This document shows, piece after piece, positions 24,509 through 29,888 of a stretch of DNA of 48,464 bases. This DNA is from Eubacterium sp. (GTDB lineage Bacteria; Bacillota; Clostridia; Lachnospirales; Lachnospiraceae), in NCBI GenBank assembly GCA_024681515.1, contig JAILAR010000163.1, positions 1-48,464 on the forward strand, in the 5' to 3' direction. A program made the position numbers and the translations under genes. The notes below the pieces were generated by a model. That model was given only the letters and a program-made list of their open reading frames with translations, was not told the DNA's origin and did no database searches. The first letter of the stretch is position 1. Each line of letters starts with the position of its first letter.

Positions 24509-24537
24509 TTGACATATTATCAAAAAGATAATAAGAT
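24509..24537 (+). promoter_or_regulatory. Promoter with operator palindrome, first unit
   Basis: TTGACA, 17-bp spacer, TAAGAT. The spacer is filled by the palindrome TATTATC, AAAAA, GATAATA (24515-24533). A near-copy of this promoter is at 27756-27784, and a second palindrome is at 24554-24572. Confidence 0.75.
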
Positions 24538-24553
24538 GTAATCGCAACAAAGA

Positions 24554-24572
24554 TATTATCAGAAAGATAATA
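24554..24572 (+). promoter_or_regulatory. Second operator palindrome
   Basis: TATTATC, AGAAA, GATAATA, centred 39 bp downstream of the first palindrome. It would lie in the early transcribed region. Confidence 0.6.
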
Positions 24573-24577
24573 AGTTA

Positions 24578-24698
24578 GGCGCGAAGTATGGAAGCCGAAT
24601 CATGGAGCGCGGACTCGAACTGAAAAATAAAGCAAATAATCGACATATACGCGCGATATGATTCGTAACGGAGCGCCGGAAGGCGCGAAGTATGGAAT
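24578..24698 (+). repeat. 104-bp-period hairpin array, copy A (leader of unknown gene)
   Basis: It begins with the right half of a hairpin (GGCGCGAAGTATGG, 24578-24591). The complete large hairpin follows (24596-24665: CGAATCAT/ATGATTCG, GGA opposite GAT, GCGCG/CGCGC, 38-nt loop starting GACTCG). A small hairpin ends the array (24661-24698: GGA opposite GAA, GCGCC/GGCGC, GGAA tetraloop). GCGAAG recurs at 24581 and 24685, exactly 104 bp apart. The array runs straight into GGAGGTGAT, the ribosome binding site at 24699. Confidence 0.7.
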
Positions 24699-24711
24699 GG
24701 AGGTGATGCTT

Positions 24712-25284
24712 ATGAACAATCTGATGAACGGGATGTTTGGGAAGATCGCACCGGGCATGTGCAGGCTGTCCATGAACGGAGAGATCGCCATCAAAACATC
24801 AAACGGCTACAAGACCTTTCGAAGCGAAATAGGTCAGCTGGTGAACTGCAGCAATTTCGTATTCCCCATCGGAGAGGAATTCTTCTTCCTGATCCCTACG
24901 AACCGGGTGAAGACAGGGGACATCATCCTGGTGAATGGGAAACCCAGATGTGTGATCACAGAGGAGGCGGATCGAATCACAGCGATCAACTACGAAGATT
25001 CCACTGTGGAGCAGATCCTTCCGGAGCGGTACATTTTCATGGGGAATACCTACTTCTACGGCAAGATCGTGTCCATGTTCGGAAATGACCTGAAGAAGGG
25101 GAACGATAAGATCCTGAAGTATATGATGCTTTCCGAGATGATGAAGGGAAACACAGCGACCGCCGGAGGAACGAATATGGGCGGCATGTCCGGAATGCTT
25201 CCGTTGCTTCTTCTGGGAAAGGGGGGCGACGGACTGTTTGAAGGGATCTTTGATTTCGACGGAGCAGATGACGCGAAGTGTTGA
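24712..25284 (+). CDS. Protein of unknown function, Met/Gly-rich C-terminus
   Basis: A 190-residue protein that I do not recognise. Residues about 1-125 look like a compact beta-rich domain, with segments such as GEIAIKTSNGYKTF and TGDIILVNGKPRCVI. The C-terminal part (about 135-185) is rich in Met, Gly and Leu, with MMLSEMMKG and a GGTNMGGMSGM run ending in a short hydrophobic stretch. There is no signal peptide. The start at 24712 is fixed by GGAGGTGAT 4 nt upstream; in-frame ATGs further up lie inside the leader. The last codons and the stop fall inside a copy of the 104-bp repeat. It is followed by a VWA gene and probably shares its transcript. Confidence 0.75.
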   Translation: MNNLMNGMFGKIAPGMCRLSMNGEIAIKTSNGYKTFRSEIGQLVNCSNFVFPIGEEFFFLIPTNRVKTGDIILVNGKPRCVITEEADRITAINYEDSTVEQILPERYIFMGNTYFYGKIVSMFGNDLKKGNDKILKYMMLSEMMKGNTATAGGTNMGGMSGMLPLLLLGKGGDGLFEGIFDFDGADDAKC

Positions 25285-25491
25285 CAATTATCATGGAGCA
25301 CGGACTCGGACATGAATAGTATGGCATATAAATGGGATATACGTGCGACATGATAATTCACGGAGCGCAGGAAGGCGCGAAGTGTGGATAATTATCATGG
25401 AGCACGGACTCGGACATGAATAGTATGGAATATAAGAGGGATATACGTGCGAAATGATAATTCACGAAGCGGCGGAAGCCGCGAAGTGTGG
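25268..25491 (+). repeat. 104-bp-period hairpin array, copy B (leader of VWA gene)
   Basis: Two full units and a partial one. GCGAAGTG occurs at 25273, 25377 and 25481, each 104 bp apart. The large hairpins are 25286-25358 and 25390-25462 (AATTATCAT/ATGATAATT, GGA opposite GAC or GAA, GCACG/CGTGC, 39-nt loop starting GACTCG). The small hairpins are 25359-25387 (CAC/GTG, GGA/GAA, GCGC/GCGC) and 25463-25491 (CAC/GTG, GAA/GAA, GCGGC/GCCGC, GGAA loop). Stem changes against copy A are compensatory. AATTATC and GATAATT arms of neighbouring hairpins can also pair with each other, so alternative folds exist. Confidence 0.75.
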
Positions 25492-25509
25492 AATAGAAAG
25501 GAGGCAATC

Positions 25510-26376
25510 ATGGGTAGCGGAATATGGAGAGTTGATACATTCAGAAGTTATTCCAGCCGGATGGGGAGAACCGTCGGCGCGGATGGCAAGGTGGCAGGCG
25601 ACCTGTCCAATCAGGAAATGTTTGCGGCCCGGAAGCTGGATCCGATGCTGGATCCGAAGGACGTGGTGCGGGAGTGCTGCGATACGCAGGAGCATCCGGA
25701 GACCATACCGGTGATCCTTGCACTGGACGTGACCGGTTCCATGGGACAGGCAGCGGTGGAAGTTGCAAAGGAGCTGAACGTTATCATGACCCGCCTGTAT
25801 CAGCAGGTAAAGGATGTGGAGTTCATGGTCATGGGGATCGGTGATCTGGCGTATGATCGGTGCCCGCTGCAGGTGAGCCAGTTTGAATCGGATATTCGGA
25901 TCGCAGAGCAGCTGGACAAGGTGTATTTTGAATTCGGCGGTGGCGGCAATGGTTATGAGTCCTACACTGTGGCATGGTATTTCGCGCTGAATCAGGTGCG
26001 GCTGGATGCCTGGAACCGTGGGCAGAGGGGAATCCTTATCACCATGGGCGATGAGGGAATCAATCCGTATCTGCCGGGCGAGCGTTTGGGAGAAATCCTC
26101 GGGAAACCGTTGGCAGAGGATGTGGAAACGGCCGGACTGTATCCGGCGGTACAGGAAAAGTATGATGTATATCATCTGTTTGTGGAACACCGTGCGAGCC
26201 GGAGCGAGGGATACATCAGGACCTGGAATGCGGTGATGGATCCGGAGCATTTTAAGGTGGTACGTCTGAATACCATCGCGGATGAGATCGTGCGGATCGT
26301 AACTGCGCATGCAGGAAATGAAGCGCTTCGCCGTGGCCGGGTTGAACTCCCGAAAGCAGCAGGAATCTCATGGTGA
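25510..26376 (+). CDS. VWA domain protein
   Basis: A 288-residue von Willebrand factor A domain protein, probably cytoplasmic because it lacks a signal peptide. The metal-ion-dependent adhesion site is intact, with DVTGS at residues 73-77 in a typical LALDVTGSMG strand-turn, followed by helices and a GIGDLAYD segment and later MGDEG. Such proteins usually act as scaffolds or metal-dependent partners of AAA+ ATPases or of modification systems; no AAA+ partner is in the window. GGAGG 5 nt before the ATG at 25510 decides the start. It lies between an unknown gene and a PurA-like gene, 42 bp from the latter. Confidence 0.85.
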   Translation: MGSGIWRVDTFRSYSSRMGRTVGADGKVAGDLSNQEMFAARKLDPMLDPKDVVRECCDTQEHPETIPVILALDVTGSMGQAAVEVAKELNVIMTRLYQQVKDVEFMVMGIGDLAYDRCPLQVSQFESDIRIAEQLDKVYFEFGGGGNGYESYTVAWYFALNQVRLDAWNRGQRGILITMGDEGINPYLPGERLGEILGKPLAEDVETAGLYPAVQEKYDVYHLFVEHRASRSEGYIRTWNAVMDPEHFKVVRLNTIADEIVRIVTAHAGNEALRRGRVELPKAAGISW

Positions 26377-26418
26377 CTATCATGGCGTGGCTCATATGAA
26401 AAGGAACAGGAGGTGCGT

Positions 26419-27741
26419 ATGCAGGACATCAAAGTTGTGATCGGCGGAAATTTCGGCGATGAAGGCAAGGGCCTGATGACGGATTATTTCGCGGCGGAAG
26501 CTGCAAAGGCCGGACGACGTGTACTGGTGGTCTGCAGCAACGGCGGCGCCCAGCGAGGACACACGGTCGTAACACCGGAGGGTGTTCGGCATGTGTTCCA
26601 TCATTTCGGTTCCGGAACCTTTGCGGGTGCGGATACCTGGCTCCCGGGCTATTTCATCGTAAATCCTATGATCTTCATGCAGGAGTATGAGGCGCTGACG
26701 GAAGCAGGTGCTTTTTCAAAGACCGGGCGCAGAGTCGGGAAGGGAGCTCGTGAGGAACGAGAAAAAAATCGTATTTTTATGGATCCGGAATGTCCGGTTT
26801 CGACTCCCTATGACATGATCGCCAATCAGATCCTGGAGAAACACCGTGGCGCAGGCAGGCACGGAAGCTGCGGTGTGGGAATCTGGGAGACCTTGATCCG
26901 GGACGGTCTGCGCCTGGGAGAACTATGCGGCATGACAGACGAAGCAATCCGAGACTGTCTATATGGCGAATGCAGAGATTATATGCGGCGAAGGCTTGCG
27001 GCAGCCGGGATCCATGAGATTCCGGCAGAATGGAAAGATATCCTGGAGGATGAAGGTTTGGTTGAGAATTATATCGCAGATTTTCGGCGTATGTGTGCCA
27101 TTGCTGAACTTCGGGAGATCGGGATCCTTCAGGAGTATGACCGGATCATTTTTGAAAACGGACAGGGTCTCCTTCTGGACCGGTCCAGAAAGGAATATGG
27201 ATGCCACACCACGCCAAGCAATACAGGTCTTCGGAATCCGGCGGCGCTGATTCGGGAGTATGTGCGATTGCTGCGAAATATGGATCAAATGAAACTGCTG
27301 TCCAACAACTACGCGAGAGGGCCAGAGCATCGGCAGGATAAGCAATCGTGGGATGACAACATACATGCCGGTATTATCGACGTCGAGGTTTGCTATGTGA
27401 CCAGAACCTACCTCACCCGCCATGGCGCCGGGCGCTTTGACGAAGAATGCGAGAAGGCAGAGATCAATGCTTCCATGGTGGACCGGACGAATGTTCCGAA
27501 TCCCCACCAGGGTACCCTGCGGTACGGACGGCTGGATGAGAAGGCGTTCCTTCGGAGGATCCGGGAGGATTACGACAGTGAACGACTGCCCGAAGGCTGT
27601 GTGAAAAGGATCACGGTGGCAGTGACACATGTAAATGAATATGCGACACCGCTCCTTCGGCGGGGATATTACATTTCCGACAGAGAGACCCGCGACAGTG
27701 TGAAGGAACGAGCCGGAGGGCGCCTTCGTAAATATGCGTGA
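26419..27741 (+). CDS. Divergent adenylosuccinate synthetase-like ligase
   Basis: A 440-residue member of the PurA superfamily. The GDEGKG phosphate loop is kept with catalytic Asp14, and the GHT motif keeps catalytic His48. IRDGLRLGEL and FENGQGLLLD align with the IMP-site and core segments of PurA. Three changes stand out. The TTGRRRR aspartate-binding loop is replaced by PHQGTLRYG at 362-370. The guanine-recognising TKLD is replaced by THVN at 403-406. The TTGRGIGP nucleotide loop is replaced by GSCGVG. The enzyme probably joins a different amine donor, uses a different NTP, or acts on a modified purine. It is unlikely to be the housekeeping PurA. The start follows GGAGG at 5 nt. It is the last gene of the unknown-VWA-PurA-like unit. 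Confidence 0.82.
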   Translation: MQDIKVVIGGNFGDEGKGLMTDYFAAEAAKAGRRVLVVCSNGGAQRGHTVVTPEGVRHVFHHFGSGTFAGADTWLPGYFIVNPMIFMQEYEALTEAGAFSKTGRRVGKGAREEREKNRIFMDPECPVSTPYDMIANQILEKHRGAGRHGSCGVGIWETLIRDGLRLGELCGMTDEAIRDCLYGECRDYMRRRLAAAGIHEIPAEWKDILEDEGLVENYIADFRRMCAIAELREIGILQEYDRIIFENGQGLLLDRSRKEYGCHTTPSNTGLRNPAALIREYVRLLRNMDQMKLLSNNYARGPEHRQDKQSWDDNIHAGIIDVEVCYVTRTYLTRHGAGRFDEECEKAEINASMVDRTNVPNPHQGTLRYGRLDEKAFLRRIREDYDSERLPEGCVKRITVAVTHVNEYATPLLRRGYYISDRETRDSVKERAGGRLRKYA

Positions 27742-27755
27742 GGATAAAAAAGTGC

Positions 27756-27784
27756 TTGAATAACTATCAAAATGATTATAAGAT
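27756..27784 (+). promoter_or_regulatory. Promoter-like site with operator palindrome, second unit
   Basis: TTGAAT, 17-bp spacer, TAAGAT. The spacer holds AACTATC, AAAAT, GATTATA, a degenerate copy of the palindrome at 24515. The flanking bases also match the first promoter, so the two control regions are homologous. Confidence 0.6.
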
Positions 27785-27793
27785 GAATATGTG

Positions 27794-27832
27794 AAAAGCG
27801 GTTGTGATCAGACTTGTCACAACCGCTTTTTT
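27794..27832 (+). terminator. Intrinsic terminator after the PurA-like gene
   Basis: Perfect stem AAGCGGTTGTGA/TCACAACCGCTT followed by TTTT. It begins only about 10 bp after the -10 of the promoter-like site at 27756-27784. Confidence 0.88.
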
Positions 27833-27836
27833 ATCT

Positions 27837-27865
27837 CACAGAGCACGTCAGTGTGAAGTGTGGAA
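27837..27865 (+). promoter_or_regulatory. Leader hairpin of the GGA/GAA family before the Nudix regulator
   Basis: CAC/GTG outer stem, AGA opposite GAA, GCAC/GTGT inner stem with loop GTCA, then TGGAA leading into GGAG. It is the same plan and 3' sequence as the small hairpins at 24661 and 25463. Confidence 0.6.
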
Positions 27866-27879
27866 TGGAGAATTTCAAT

Positions 27880-28779
27880 ATGATCCCATACAATATATCG
27901 GAAGAAGAAAAAGAATATCTGAAGGGGTATGATCCGTCGAAGTATGACCGGCCGTCGCTGACGGCAGACATGGCCGTCTTTGCAATCTTAAATGACGGGG
28001 AGGCTGTGAATTGCAGGAAGGATCCTGCGCAGCGGCTGGGGATCCTGCTGATCCGAAGAGGCGGTTTTCCCTACAAGGGGTATTATGCGCTGCCTGGCGG
28101 CTTTGCCATGCAGGGAGAGACCATCGAGGAGACGGCACTGCGGGAATTGAAGGAAGAGACTTCGGTGGACAGTGCATTTCTGGAATCCTTCGGAATGTTC
28201 AGTGCACCCGGGCGGGATCCCAGAGGATGGATCGTGTCTCAGGCATTTCTGGCTCTGGTGGATGCAGACAAATGTAGCCTTTCTGCGGGCTCCGATGCAA
28301 AGGAAGCAGCCTGGTTCTTCATCGATGTGGAGAGGGAGGAACGCAAGAAAACCGTAAACCGTGACAGCGCCTCTCTCAAGGCACGGCTGAAACTCTGGCT
28401 GGAGCATGAGAAGACGGTGCTTTCCGCCGTGGTGGAGGAGACGAGAGAGTTCAGAATGCACCACGAGAAGACCACATATAAGATAATAAAAAGCGATGGC
28501 ATCGCCTTTGATCATGCGGAGATCATCCTCCGGGCATTTCAGGCGCTCTGCGATCGAACAGAGCAGTCAGGACGGATCGTATTTGATCTGATGCCGGAGA
28601 CCTTTACGCTGTACAGTCTGCAGGAAGCCCATGAGATCATTCTCGGAGAAAAACTTCTGACACCGAATTTCCGGCGGAAGATCGCTCCCTTTGTGGAAGA
28701 AACCGGCGTTACCGTGACCGGTACGGGACACCGGCCCGCCATGCTGTTCCGGAGAAAACTGGATGCTTTTTATATGTGA
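27880..28779 (+). CDS. NrtR-type Nudix transcriptional regulator
   Basis: A 299-residue two-domain protein. The N-terminal Nudix domain has its box at residues 74-96 (G74 through RELKEE 88-93). The C-terminal winged helix-turn-helix of NrtR type spans about 205-299, where HEIILGEKL and NFRRKI are typical. NrtR proteins sense ADP-ribose or related nucleotides and repress NAD-metabolism genes. Here the catalytic RExxEE is intact, so hydrolysis of a nucleotide is also possible. The start at 27880 is chosen because GGAG is 9 nt upstream. It is the first gene of a unit with a diguanylate cyclase (17 bp later) and a methyltransferase. It may control both neighbouring units through the shared palindrome; this is inference. 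Confidence 0.85.
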   Translation: MIPYNISEEEKEYLKGYDPSKYDRPSLTADMAVFAILNDGEAVNCRKDPAQRLGILLIRRGGFPYKGYYALPGGFAMQGETIEETALRELKEETSVDSAFLESFGMFSAPGRDPRGWIVSQAFLALVDADKCSLSAGSDAKEAAWFFIDVEREERKKTVNRDSASLKARLKLWLEHEKTVLSAVVEETREFRMHHEKTTYKIIKSDGIAFDHAEIILRAFQALCDRTEQSGRIVFDLMPETFTLYSLQEAHEIILGEKLLTPNFRRKIAPFVEETGVTVTGTGHRPAMLFRRKLDAFYM

Positions 28780-28796
28780 ATTCGGGAGGAGAGAAG

Positions 28797-29888
28797 ATGC
28801 TGATTCTGAATGCATTCTTTGAAGACTATTTTTTAAATAACTATGTGCTGCTGGTCATGCTGGGCGGGATGCTTCTCCTGACCGTGCACGATGTGTATCT
28901 GGAGAATCGTGCGCTGGTGTGGCTCCGGCTGACCATCGCAGCGATCTTTGTATTATCGCTTTTTGAATACTTTGAAGAATGTTATAGCGCGCAGGCAGAA
29001 TCGTCAAACTGGCGGATCCTGTTCTCGGCGCTGTGCTACACGCTTCGTCCGGCCATCATCATGATGATCATGTTCAGTATCCACAAGCGCGTGTCTCTTT
29101 GGATCACGGTTCCTGCGATCATCAATATGCTGGTGGTATTCTCGGCGTTCTTTACGGACATCGCATTTTCATTTACAAGCGATAACTATTTTATCCGCGG
29201 ACCGCTGGGATATCTGCCCTACTTCGTCAGTGCGTTTTATCTGCTGGTCCTGATCATTCTTTCCATCCGGTCTCTTTCGAGAAATACGATCCGGGAACAG
29301 ATCGTGGTCTTTTTTATCGGCCTTGCCGCAGTGGGTGCGGCGCTGCTTTCACTGTTCGCACACGACTGGGTCGTGATCCCGACCTATGCTGCCGGCATGC
29401 TGCTGTATTATCTTTTCACATATGCACAGTACACGAAGCGGGATGTACTGACCGGCCTTCTGAACCGGCAGTCCTTCTACAGTGATATCGACAAATATGA
29501 CAATGACGTACGGGGCGTGATCTCCATCGACATGAATGAATTGAAATGGCTGAATGATAATTACGGACATACAGCCGGAGATAAGGCCCTTGCGGTGGTC
29601 TCGGAATGTTTCCTGAAATGCGCGACGGCTGCGGAGCGGGTATATCGGGTCGGCGGTGATGAATTTGTGGTCCTTTCGAAACGTGGAGATCCGGATTATC
29701 TGAGCAGCCTGATGGAGCAGATGCGGGCCGCTGTAGACGACACAGAGTACTCCTGCGCCTTTGGTTATTCTGAGGGGAGGGATGCGGAGGATATGGTTCG
29801 GGAAGCCGACGAACGGATGCTGGCGGACAAGGCGGCCATCAAGGAGCGGATGCATCAGGAGGGAAGAACCATACATTTCAGAGATTGA
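28797..29888 (+). CDS. Membrane diguanylate cyclase (GGDEF)
   Basis: A 363-residue inner-membrane protein. About seven hydrophobic helices occupy residues 1-200 and are followed by a GGDEF domain starting at DVLTGLLNR. The active-site motif GGDEF is at 286-290, so cyclic di-GMP synthesis is expected. The RxxD product-inhibition site is absent at the usual distance (the residues there are TAAE). The membrane part is probably a sensor of unknown signal. The start is set by GGGAGGAG. It is 17 bp after the Nudix regulator and 9 bp before the methyltransferase, hence co-transcribed. Confidence 0.9.
   Translation: MLILNAFFEDYFLNNYVLLVMLGGMLLLTVHDVYLENRALVWLRLTIAAIFVLSLFEYFEECYSAQAESSNWRILFSALCYTLRPAIIMMIMFSIHKRVSLWITVPAIINMLVVFSAFFTDIAFSFTSDNYFIRGPLGYLPYFVSAFYLLVLIILSIRSLSRNTIREQIVVFFIGLAAVGAALLSLFAHDWVVIPTYAAGMLLYYLFTYAQYTKRDVLTGLLNRQSFYSDIDKYDNDVRGVISIDMNELKWLNDNYGHTAGDKALAVVSECFLKCATAAERVYRVGGDEFVVLSKRGDPDYLSSLMEQMRAAVDDTEYSCAFGYSEGRDAEDMVREADERMLADKAAIKERMHQEGRTIHFRD

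What the first reader, a model, noticed from the sequence alone, without database searches (positions are those of the whole stretch)
24578..25491. Hairpin arrays with an exact 104-bp period and covarying stems
Seen: GCGAAG recurs at 24581/24685 and at 25273/25377/25481, always 104 bp apart, in two arrays separated by a gene. Each unit has one large and one small hairpin with a 3x3 internal loop (mostly GGA opposite GAA or GAY) between an outer and an inner stem. Stem sequences change in both arms together: CGAATCAT/ATGATTCG vs AATTATCAT/ATGATAATT, GCGCG/CGCGC vs GCACG/CGTGC, GCGCC/GGCGC vs GCGGC/GCCGC. The large loop always opens with GACTCG. Keeping pairing and period while sequence drifts points to selection on an RNA (or DNA) fold. 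I know no riboswitch of this form. Candidate roles: regulatory leader, protein-binding RNA, or a mobile palindromic repeat.
Basis: seen in the sequence. Interest (0 to 1): 0.86.

Follow-up and report, generated by a model that had tools for sequence, protein, structure and literature searches.

The report
Repeated hairpin leaders before many genes
A gut bacterium of the family Lachnospiraceae carries more than a hundred copies of a hairpin sequence, most of them placed just in front of the ribosome-binding site of unrelated genes, which looks like a spreading RNA leader element whose function is still untested.

Summary
The 104-bp unit (large hairpin L, then small hairpin S) belongs to a dispersed family: 143 matches to a whole-unit covariance model in the own genome, 114 to a model of S alone. 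Covariation is strong, also against a tree-aware null. No Rfam match. Copies are tied to gene starts: of 104 sites, 73 have a sense Shine-Dalgarno and start codon within 30 nt of the S end, 1 has one in antisense. Downstream genes share no pathway, so a riboswitch is unlikely. The family is narrow: 5 of 61 genomes of the genus, and in a family-wide draw only the genome itself, 1 of 299. Unit edges are sharp; arrays grow and shrink, and elements change faster than flanking genes. Best reading: a spreading, modular, transcribed leader/intercistronic hairpin element, BOX/STAR-like in dynamics but placed at the ribosome-binding site. Its RNA-level effect (insulation, processing, stability) is inferred. 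A selfish DNA hairpin element with a target preference is the main rival.

The parts
24509..24537 (+). promoter-like TTGACA-17-TAAGAT upstream of array 1 (consensus match only)
   Evidence: 1 found, 1.8 expected from shuffles of the region
24577..24593 (+). S-tail remnant (AGGCGCGAAGTATGGAA) at the 5' edge of array 1
24596..24665 (+). L hairpin of array 1: outer stem 24596-24603/24658-24665, 3x3 loop GGA/GAT, inner stem 24607-24611/24650-24654, apical loop of 38 nt between
   Evidence: model match 24595-24698
24668..24698 (+). S hairpin of array 1 with tail TGGAAT: GGA 24670-24672, GCGCC/GGCGC with GGAA loop, GAA 24687-24689
   Evidence: model match 24663-24698
24699..24703 (+). Shine-Dalgarno GGAGG directly after the S tail
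24712..25284 (+). 190-aa protein read from the ATG behind that Shine-Dalgarno (the mechanical ORF starts at 24658); no Pfam match; its last codons and stop lie in the next S tail
25270..25285 (+). S tail at the 5' edge of array 2 (GACGCGAAGTGTTGAC), overlapping the upstream stop codon
25286..25390 (+). array 2, first L+S unit
25390..25494 (+). array 2, second L+S unit
25495..25504 (+). extended Shine-Dalgarno AGAAAGGAGG directly after array 2
25510..26376 (+). 288-aa downstream protein (looks like a von Willebrand A-type protein by eye; no Pfam match)

Best explanation
A dispersed, modular, transcribed leader element. The unit is one L hairpin directly followed by one S hairpin and the tail TGGAAT (about 104 bp). 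SHOWN: more than 100 S copies, conserved pairing, sense orientation, position just 5' of Shine-Dalgarno and start codon at most sites, sharp unit edges, tandem growth and loss, narrow host range. INFERRED: 72 of 81 classified sense sites have 24 nt or less between S and the start codon, so no promoter fits between them and these mRNAs should carry the hairpins at the 5' end or between cistrons. There they most likely act in cis on the message: they keep the ribosome-binding site in a fixed single-stranded setting, separate it from the cistron upstream, and serve as a stability or processing barrier, with array length as a possible tuner. The unit spreads as DNA by an unknown route.
For: 143 whole-unit and 114 S matches in the genome. 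Covariation: 182 doubly changed cells against 48 in shuffles, 0 of 500; against a tree-aware null without pairing, observed 92.3% paired / 166 cells / 17 pairs versus means 82.6 / 28 / 8.9 and maxima 88.2 / 79 / 13 in 200 runs. Position: 73 of 104 sites sense versus 1 of 104 antisense; shifted controls 63 of 918 and 18 of 920. In 64 of 81 L+S rows a same-strand ORF ends within 200 nt upstream, in 44 within 44 nt or overlapping, so many copies fill a gap inside an operon. By eye, of 19 congener S sites shown, 11 sit directly before a sense Shine-Dalgarno and start and 2 more at a longer spacing. A Clp ATPase gene (L008, Pfam) has the element between a CIRCE-like site and its start codon (CIRCE recalled). 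The predicted Shine-Dalgarno is not sequestered and is slightly more open with the element: 0.60 versus 0.53, p about 0.05, 45 leaders.
Against: No transcript data; no effect on expression is shown. The accessibility effect is weak and not significant against shuffled elements (p about 0.09). Of the 31 sites failing the strict test, 13 are not leaders by eye: for example L074 and L024 precede terminator-like hairpins, and L064 (C57:10694) precedes TTGACA-17-TATAAT. Of 19 congener sites, 5 are not leaders and 1 runs into a contig end. Covariation and position could also come from a DNA hairpin element that inserts next to AGGAG. The G019 copy at the window's orthologous locus has lost one L and part of its pairing while its genes stay intact, so the structure is not indispensable there. 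A3 was fitted to the model and leans to its structure, and the tree null uses A3 too; A2, made by MAFFT alone, agrees but holds 19 copies. The best fold of array 2 is not the local one.
Confidence: 0.5

Rival explanations
1. A selfish DNA element: a hairpin-bearing unit moved as single-stranded DNA by an unknown enzyme, inserting next to an AGGAG-like target. The target's strand fixes the orientation; purifying selection removes insertions inside genes. Pairing is kept for the enzyme, not for the mRNA.
For: Sharp edges at both ends in 99 close pairs of copies from different loci; fixed orientation; head-to-tail arrays and, by eye, no target duplication in the close pairs shown. Close pair L073/L074: one is followed by AGGAGG, the other is not, so the unit ends at GGAAT. 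At panD the Shine-Dalgarno resembles that of congeners lacking the element. An element tract is exchanged between flanks of 94-97% identity.
Against: No cognate enzyme found: the only Y1 transposase match in the genome is cut off at a contig end, and the hairpin in front of it looks unrelated to S. Y1 matches do not follow S copy number: 11 versus 3 in G002, 0 versus 12 in G019. Other enzyme families were not searched. Several non-leader copies have no AGGAG next to them. Well diverged copies still pair.
Confidence: 0.33
2. A protein-bound RNA regulon: a trans-acting RNA-binding protein reads the GGA/GAA 3x3 loops, which occur in both hairpins, or the GGACT...AA.GC loop, and controls translation of about a hundred genes.
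For: Both hairpins share the GGAGC...GCGAA architecture. Conserved unpaired letters: A19, C20 and T21 at 87-96%, A35 and A36 at 89-97%, G38 at 96%, TGGAAT tail at 91-97%. An L-prime variant with another stem keeps a similar loop, by eye.
Against: CsrA, one candidate reader, was found in 0 of 8 genomes searched, although the control rang in 3 of 14 known genomes; other RNA-binding proteins were not searched. No common pathway downstream. Nine orthologous genes compared in G002 and panD in 19 congeners do without the element.
Confidence: 0.14
3. A ligand-binding riboswitch or another known RNA family.
For: Structured leader next to the ribosome-binding site.
Against: No Rfam match at gathering level in the window or in five further loci, only matches far below gathering scores at E up to 10, none over a unit; unrelated downstream genes; no convincing covariation inside the 38-nt loop.
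Confidence: 0.03

Closest known systems
BOX elements of Streptococcus pneumoniae (PMC3049150, passages read)
   Same: Short, modular, hairpin-forming dispersed repeats with variable tandem copies of a module; few clear relations to the function of flanking genes.
   Different: The paper reports BOX over-represented between convergent genes (Table 1 as seen: 70 upstream of at least one CDS, 16 convergent, P 0.0017); here copies are mostly sense and directly before the Shine-Dalgarno. L and S have no boxA/boxC-type distinct ends. BOX sequences were not compared with ours.
STAR elements of Staphylococcus (PMC3532100, abstract and passages read)
   Same: Lineage-specific abundance, different loci in different species, expansion and contraction at a locus.
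   Different: Described as interspersed intergenic direct repeats; the terms stem-loop, secondary structure and start codon have 0 occurrences in its main text. At the gapR locus a STAR-associated site is given as 368 bp upstream of the ATG.
TAACTGA repeats of marine Beggiatoaceae (PMC4679880, abstract and section list read)
   Different: A heptamer repeat; ours is a covarying 104-nt two-hairpin unit next to a canonical Shine-Dalgarno.
[quoted passage not shown]
   Same: Intergenic stem-loops within operons of a clostridial bacterium, linked to transcript stability.
   Different: Main protection there is attributed to 3' ends; here the hairpins lie at the 5' side of the cistron and form one dispersed sequence family.
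REP/BIME with RAYT, and IS200/IS605-derived elements (recalled)
   Same: Short palindromic units, arrays, no target duplication.
   Different: No Y1 transposase with S- or L-like ends was found in the own genome.

Membership tests
BOX-type modular repeat | dispersed intergenic hairpin repeat built of modules, one repeated in tandem | tested here: met
   L+S, S only, L+S arrays, S arrays of 33-37 nt period in congeners
BOX-type modular repeat | distinct end modules boxA and boxC around boxB | tested here: not met
   units begin with L and end with S and arrays repeat the same unit, by reading; BOX sequences themselves not compared
BOX-type modular repeat | excess between convergent genes | tested here: not met
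   automatic calls of upstream/downstream strand: +/+ 60, -/+ 23, +/- 9, -/- 3, incomplete 9, of 104; several of the +/- calls have a sense start in the same table and are miscalls
STAR-type repeat | copy number varies locally while flanks are stable, and loci differ between species | tested here: met
MITE | terminal inverted repeats | tested here: not met
   unit starts (A/G)ATTATC and ends TGGAAT, by reading
MITE | target-site duplication | tested here: inconclusive
   none seen by eye in close pairs, but no clean empty site at strain level
REP/RAYT or IS200/605 derivative | cognate Y1 transposase in the genome, with matching hairpin ends | tested here: not met
   one Y1 match, cut off at a contig end, with a different hairpin in front; the assembly has gaps
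known Rfam family or riboswitch | match to a curated covariance model | tested here: not met
riboswitch | downstream genes of one pathway | tested here: not met
   86 candidate downstream proteins plus L36 scanned, 74 of 87 with a Pfam family, no common pathway by reading
CsrA-controlled leaders | csrA in the genome | tested here: not met
   0 of 8 genomes, own included
SRPS stem-loops | processed RNA ends at the element | not testable with these tools
   needs RNA data

The most novel reading that the evidence does not exclude
A mobile 5'-leader cassette: a self-spreading two-hairpin unit that lands exactly in front of ribosome-binding sites and so places about a hundred unrelated genes, among them those for CodY, MecA, a RelA/SpoT-domain protein, a Clp ATPase, RecG, PanD and ribosomal protein L36, under one shared, tunable post-transcriptional control layer that arose within one narrow lineage.
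Probability: 0.25. Interest if true: 0.87.

Novelty: new variant of a known kind. Interest (0 to 1): 0.68.

Why it matters
Dispersed hairpin repeats in bacteria are often seen as parasites that gather where they do least harm. Here a repeat sits at a very sensitive place, directly before the ribosome-binding site, in sense, at some 70 to 90 genes including core ones, and keeps its pairing while its sequence drifts. Either the RNA is useful, which would show how a new global control layer arises by spread of one leader, or an element targets ribosome-binding sites without killing its host, which would be a new insertion habit. Both can be tested directly.

Tried and rejected
Rfam at gathering level and at E up to 10: no family. 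A tRNA-derived origin, suggested by GGACTCGAAC being the reverse complement of a tRNA T-arm (recalled): ARAGORN finds no tRNA in L001 and other copies read CTGTAT at that place (13 of 79 contain it), so dropped. Extra pairing inside the 38-nt loop: the mutual-information scan has stem pairs at or near the top, its first place is an S-loop length effect, and no loop pair is convincing. Sequestration of the Shine-Dalgarno: not seen. CsrA: not found. RAYT/IS200-type mobilisation: no cognate enzyme found. Horizontal sharing as the reason for congener copies: some congener loci with elements are 90-97% identical to this genome against 80-84% at the pan locus, so part of the copies in G019 and G017 may have come with recombined DNA; not pursued. 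Literature: seven searches that ran listed nothing that describes this element; the library is open-access PubMed Central only and I saw listings and abstracts' beginnings except for the papers named.

Limits: E-values of my models are rough. The 143 matches come from 150 scored of 1451 first-look candidates, so the number may be low. Large genus and family searches use stricter filters and score few candidates per genome (113 and 23), so weak relatives can be missed; the family draw took about one genome per genus. The genome is a 197-contig assembly, 97% complete with 4.6% contamination, and repeats break contigs. Site counts use 113 of 114 S hits, because one hit (C26:32298) lay outside the DNA I held. 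My gene calls are simple ORF rules; the neighbour classes contain miscalls. The script that should show the region before the 288-aa gene in congeners picked the wrong start in 10 of 15 loci; of the five read properly, two are own and G019, and L327, L330 and L334 show no L or S by eye. 'By eye' marks readings of printed sequence without a test.

Full report
WHAT WAS GIVEN AND WHAT IS THERE. The five GCGAAG positions and the 104-bp period are exact. Each unit is a large hairpin L (outer stem 8-9 bp, 3x3 loop, inner stem 5 bp, about 38-nt apical loop) followed almost without spacer by a small hairpin S (outer stem 3 bp, 3x3 loop GGA/GAA, inner stem 4-5 bp, short loop) and a tail TGGAAT. Array 1 (24577-24698) lies between a promoter-like TTGACA-17-TAAGAT (24509-24537; one found where shuffles give 1.8) and the GGAGG of a 190-aa gene read from 24712. 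Array 2 (25270-25494, two units) fills the gap between that gene and the next at 25510, and its first S tail contains the stop codon of the upstream gene.

A GENOME-WIDE FAMILY. A BLAST search of the own genome with 218 bp gave 40 places, all that were scored of 138 candidates. A covariance model of the whole unit, R1, from 19 copies, gave 143 matches at E up to 0.01 among 150 scored candidates; I read 80 distinct near-full-length copies. A model of S alone, R2, from 51 copies gave 114 matches. Forms seen: L+S, tandem L+S, S alone, S arrays with a 33-37 nt period in congeners, and an L-prime variant with another stem but a similar loop (by eye).

STRUCTURE. On the MAFFT alignment A2 (19 copies) 96.0% of cells pair, 27 cells are changed on both sides against 7.9 in shuffles, and slid controls pair at 11-53%. 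S alone, 51 copies: 98.2% paired, 28 doubly changed cells against 9.3; the outer pair is U-A in 28 and C-G in 18. On the model-fitted alignment A3 (86 distinct rows) 92.2% pair and 182 cells are doubly changed against 48, 0 of 500 shuffles. Because related copies can mimic covariation, I simulated unpaired evolution on a FastTree tree of 79 copies with the observed number of changes per column: observed 92.3% / 166 cells / 17 pairs, simulated means 82.6 / 28 / 8.9 and maxima 88.2 / 79 / 13 in 200 runs. Mutual information has stem pairs at or near the top; the first place and some others involve the S loop, whose length varies. Some copies replace two outer pairs by a tandem G-A mismatch (AATCAGAAC opposite GTGATGATT, by eye). 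Against this: the minimum-energy fold of array 2 pairs unit with unit.

POSITION. I merged 113 of 114 S hits into 104 sites. With a strict rule (Shine-Dalgarno core, start codon within 30 nt of the S end, ORF of at least 60 codons) 73 of 104 sites are leaders in sense and 1 of 104 in antisense; shifted positions give 63 of 918 and 18 of 920. Reading the 31 failures by eye, about 18 more have a sense start that the rule missed (a short ORF such as ribosomal protein L36 in L040, a GGGG-type or weak Shine-Dalgarno, or a longer spacing) and 13 are not leaders. The median distance from the S end to the start codon is 13 nt among 81 sites, 72 of them at 24 nt or less, which leaves no room for a promoter in between. 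After the tail the commonest letters are AGGAGG (69 sites). In 64 of 81 L+S rows a same-strand ORF of at least 100 codons ends within 200 nt upstream, in 44 within 44 nt or overlapping by up to 12. Of the 19 congener S sites printed (G002, G017, G019, G036), 11 lie directly before a sense Shine-Dalgarno and start by eye, 2 at a longer spacing, 5 do not (L110, L112, L113, L123, L126) and 1 runs into a contig end.

GENES. All 86 candidate downstream proteins of my ORF rule, plus L36, were scanned; 74 of 87 have a Pfam family (one gene counts twice because two S copies precede it). Among them: CodY, MecA, RelA/SpoT-domain, RecG, aspartate decarboxylase, leucyl/phenylalanyl-tRNA transferase, aconitase, RNase HII, ammonium transporter, histidinol dehydrogenase, ArgJ, HU-type DNA-binding protein, FeoA/FeoB, phosphate acetyl/butyryl transferase, queuine tRNA-ribosyltransferase, Clp ATPase. 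I see no common pathway; no enrichment test was run.

DISTRIBUTION. R1: 5 of 61 genomes among the relatives drawn (own and 4 of 36 congeners; 0 of 24 from other families of the order). R2: 5 of 61 in the genus with 114, 12, 7, 3 and 3 hits; a wider request returned the same 61 genomes. Family draw: 1 of 299, the own genome. G002 has the contig length of Lachnospiraceae bacterium AC2029, JNLK01000001.1, so the window comes from the genus of that isolate; the organism itself was not named.

EMPTY SITES AND TURNOVER. Between panC and panD the element is present here; of 22 congener loci tried, 19 could be read by my script and none shows it by eye. In the 400 kb of G002 that I held, nine orthologous sites could be compared and all lack it by eye. 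Spacers are too diverged to show a clean insertion, and at panD the element nearly fills the whole gap. Close pairs of copies at different loci (99 pairs at 80% identity or more) lose similarity at the first bases outside the unit, apart from an A preference at -3 and the Shine-Dalgarno. Neighbouring units in an array are the most alike (0.905-1.00); median identity over all pairs is 0.70; one dispersed pair is 0.99. At the window's own locus G019 has 535 of 549 and 835 of 867 identical coding bases, but array 2 keeps only 120 identical of 153 aligned of 226 bases, with one L lost between GCGAA repeats. Coding sequence is constrained, so part of this contrast is expected. At L066/L108 flanks are 94-97% identical while the element tract is an L-prime+S in one species and two L+S units in the other.

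READING. The anatomy and spread I regard as established. That the hairpins act in the mRNA follows from their likely transcription, the sense bias and the maintained pairing, but none of this excludes a DNA-level element that prefers Shine-Dalgarno sequences. I looked for one kind of machinery for that rival and did not find it. CsrA, a natural candidate for GGA-rich leaders, was not found. The predicted opening of the Shine-Dalgarno is small.

KNOWN RELATIVES IN KIND. BOX (PMC3049150), STAR (PMC3532100) and TAACTGA repeats (PMC4679880) are the nearest kinds that I found; stem-loops of selective RNA processing in a clostridial bacterium (PMC4423207) are the nearest mechanism. In what I read of them, none combines a covarying two-hairpin unit, a tie to the ribosome-binding site and such a narrow host range. 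My literature searches listed no description of this element.

Noticed in passing
window 24514-24535 and 24553-24574: Two copies of ATATTATCARAAAGATAATAAG, an operator-like palindrome (ATTATC-N5-GATAAT) overlapping and following the promoter-like site of the operon; the L outer stem of many copies reads ATTATC/GATAAT as well, which may be coincidence.
   Followed up: no
window 26413-29888: Behind the array follow, on the same strand, an adenylosuccinate-synthetase homologue (Pfam match over residues 8-273 only), a NUDIX protein with an NrtR-type winged helix and a GGDEF protein; the set may be a nucleotide-related operon.
   Followed up: partly
L008:1466-1492 (own genome, C42): A CIRCE-like inverted repeat (TTAGCACTC-N9-GAGTGCTAA, name recalled) lies just upstream of the element before a Clp ATPase gene (Pfam); the L left arm is missing there.
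   Followed up: no
L019, L045, L046, L085, L095, L101 (own genome): Other repeated sequences stand next to elements, for example TTATGAGCCGGCTTCC...GGCCGGCTCATAAG, GATTCTCC...GGAGAAT and GGAGCAATCGGAGAGGGAGGCATGGCTCATAT, so this genome seems to hold more than one dispersed repeat family.
   Followed up: no
L283-L302 (G002, first 400 kb): G002 has its own dispersed 14-mer GGGACGGTTCTGAT, 24 occurrences in 400 kb over both strands, and 11 Y1 transposase matches in its genome; a REP/RAYT-like system seems possible there.
   Followed up: no
L245, L243 (own genome), L108 (G017): An L-prime hairpin with stem AGCGC/GCGCT keeps a loop like that of L by eye; congeners may carry further variants that my models miss.
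   Followed up: partly
L057/L325 (G019 C196), L108 (G017 C116), L126 (G017 C26): Some congener loci that carry the element are 90-97% identical to this genome although the pan locus is only 80-84% identical, suggesting recent recombination between species at these places.
   Followed up: partly
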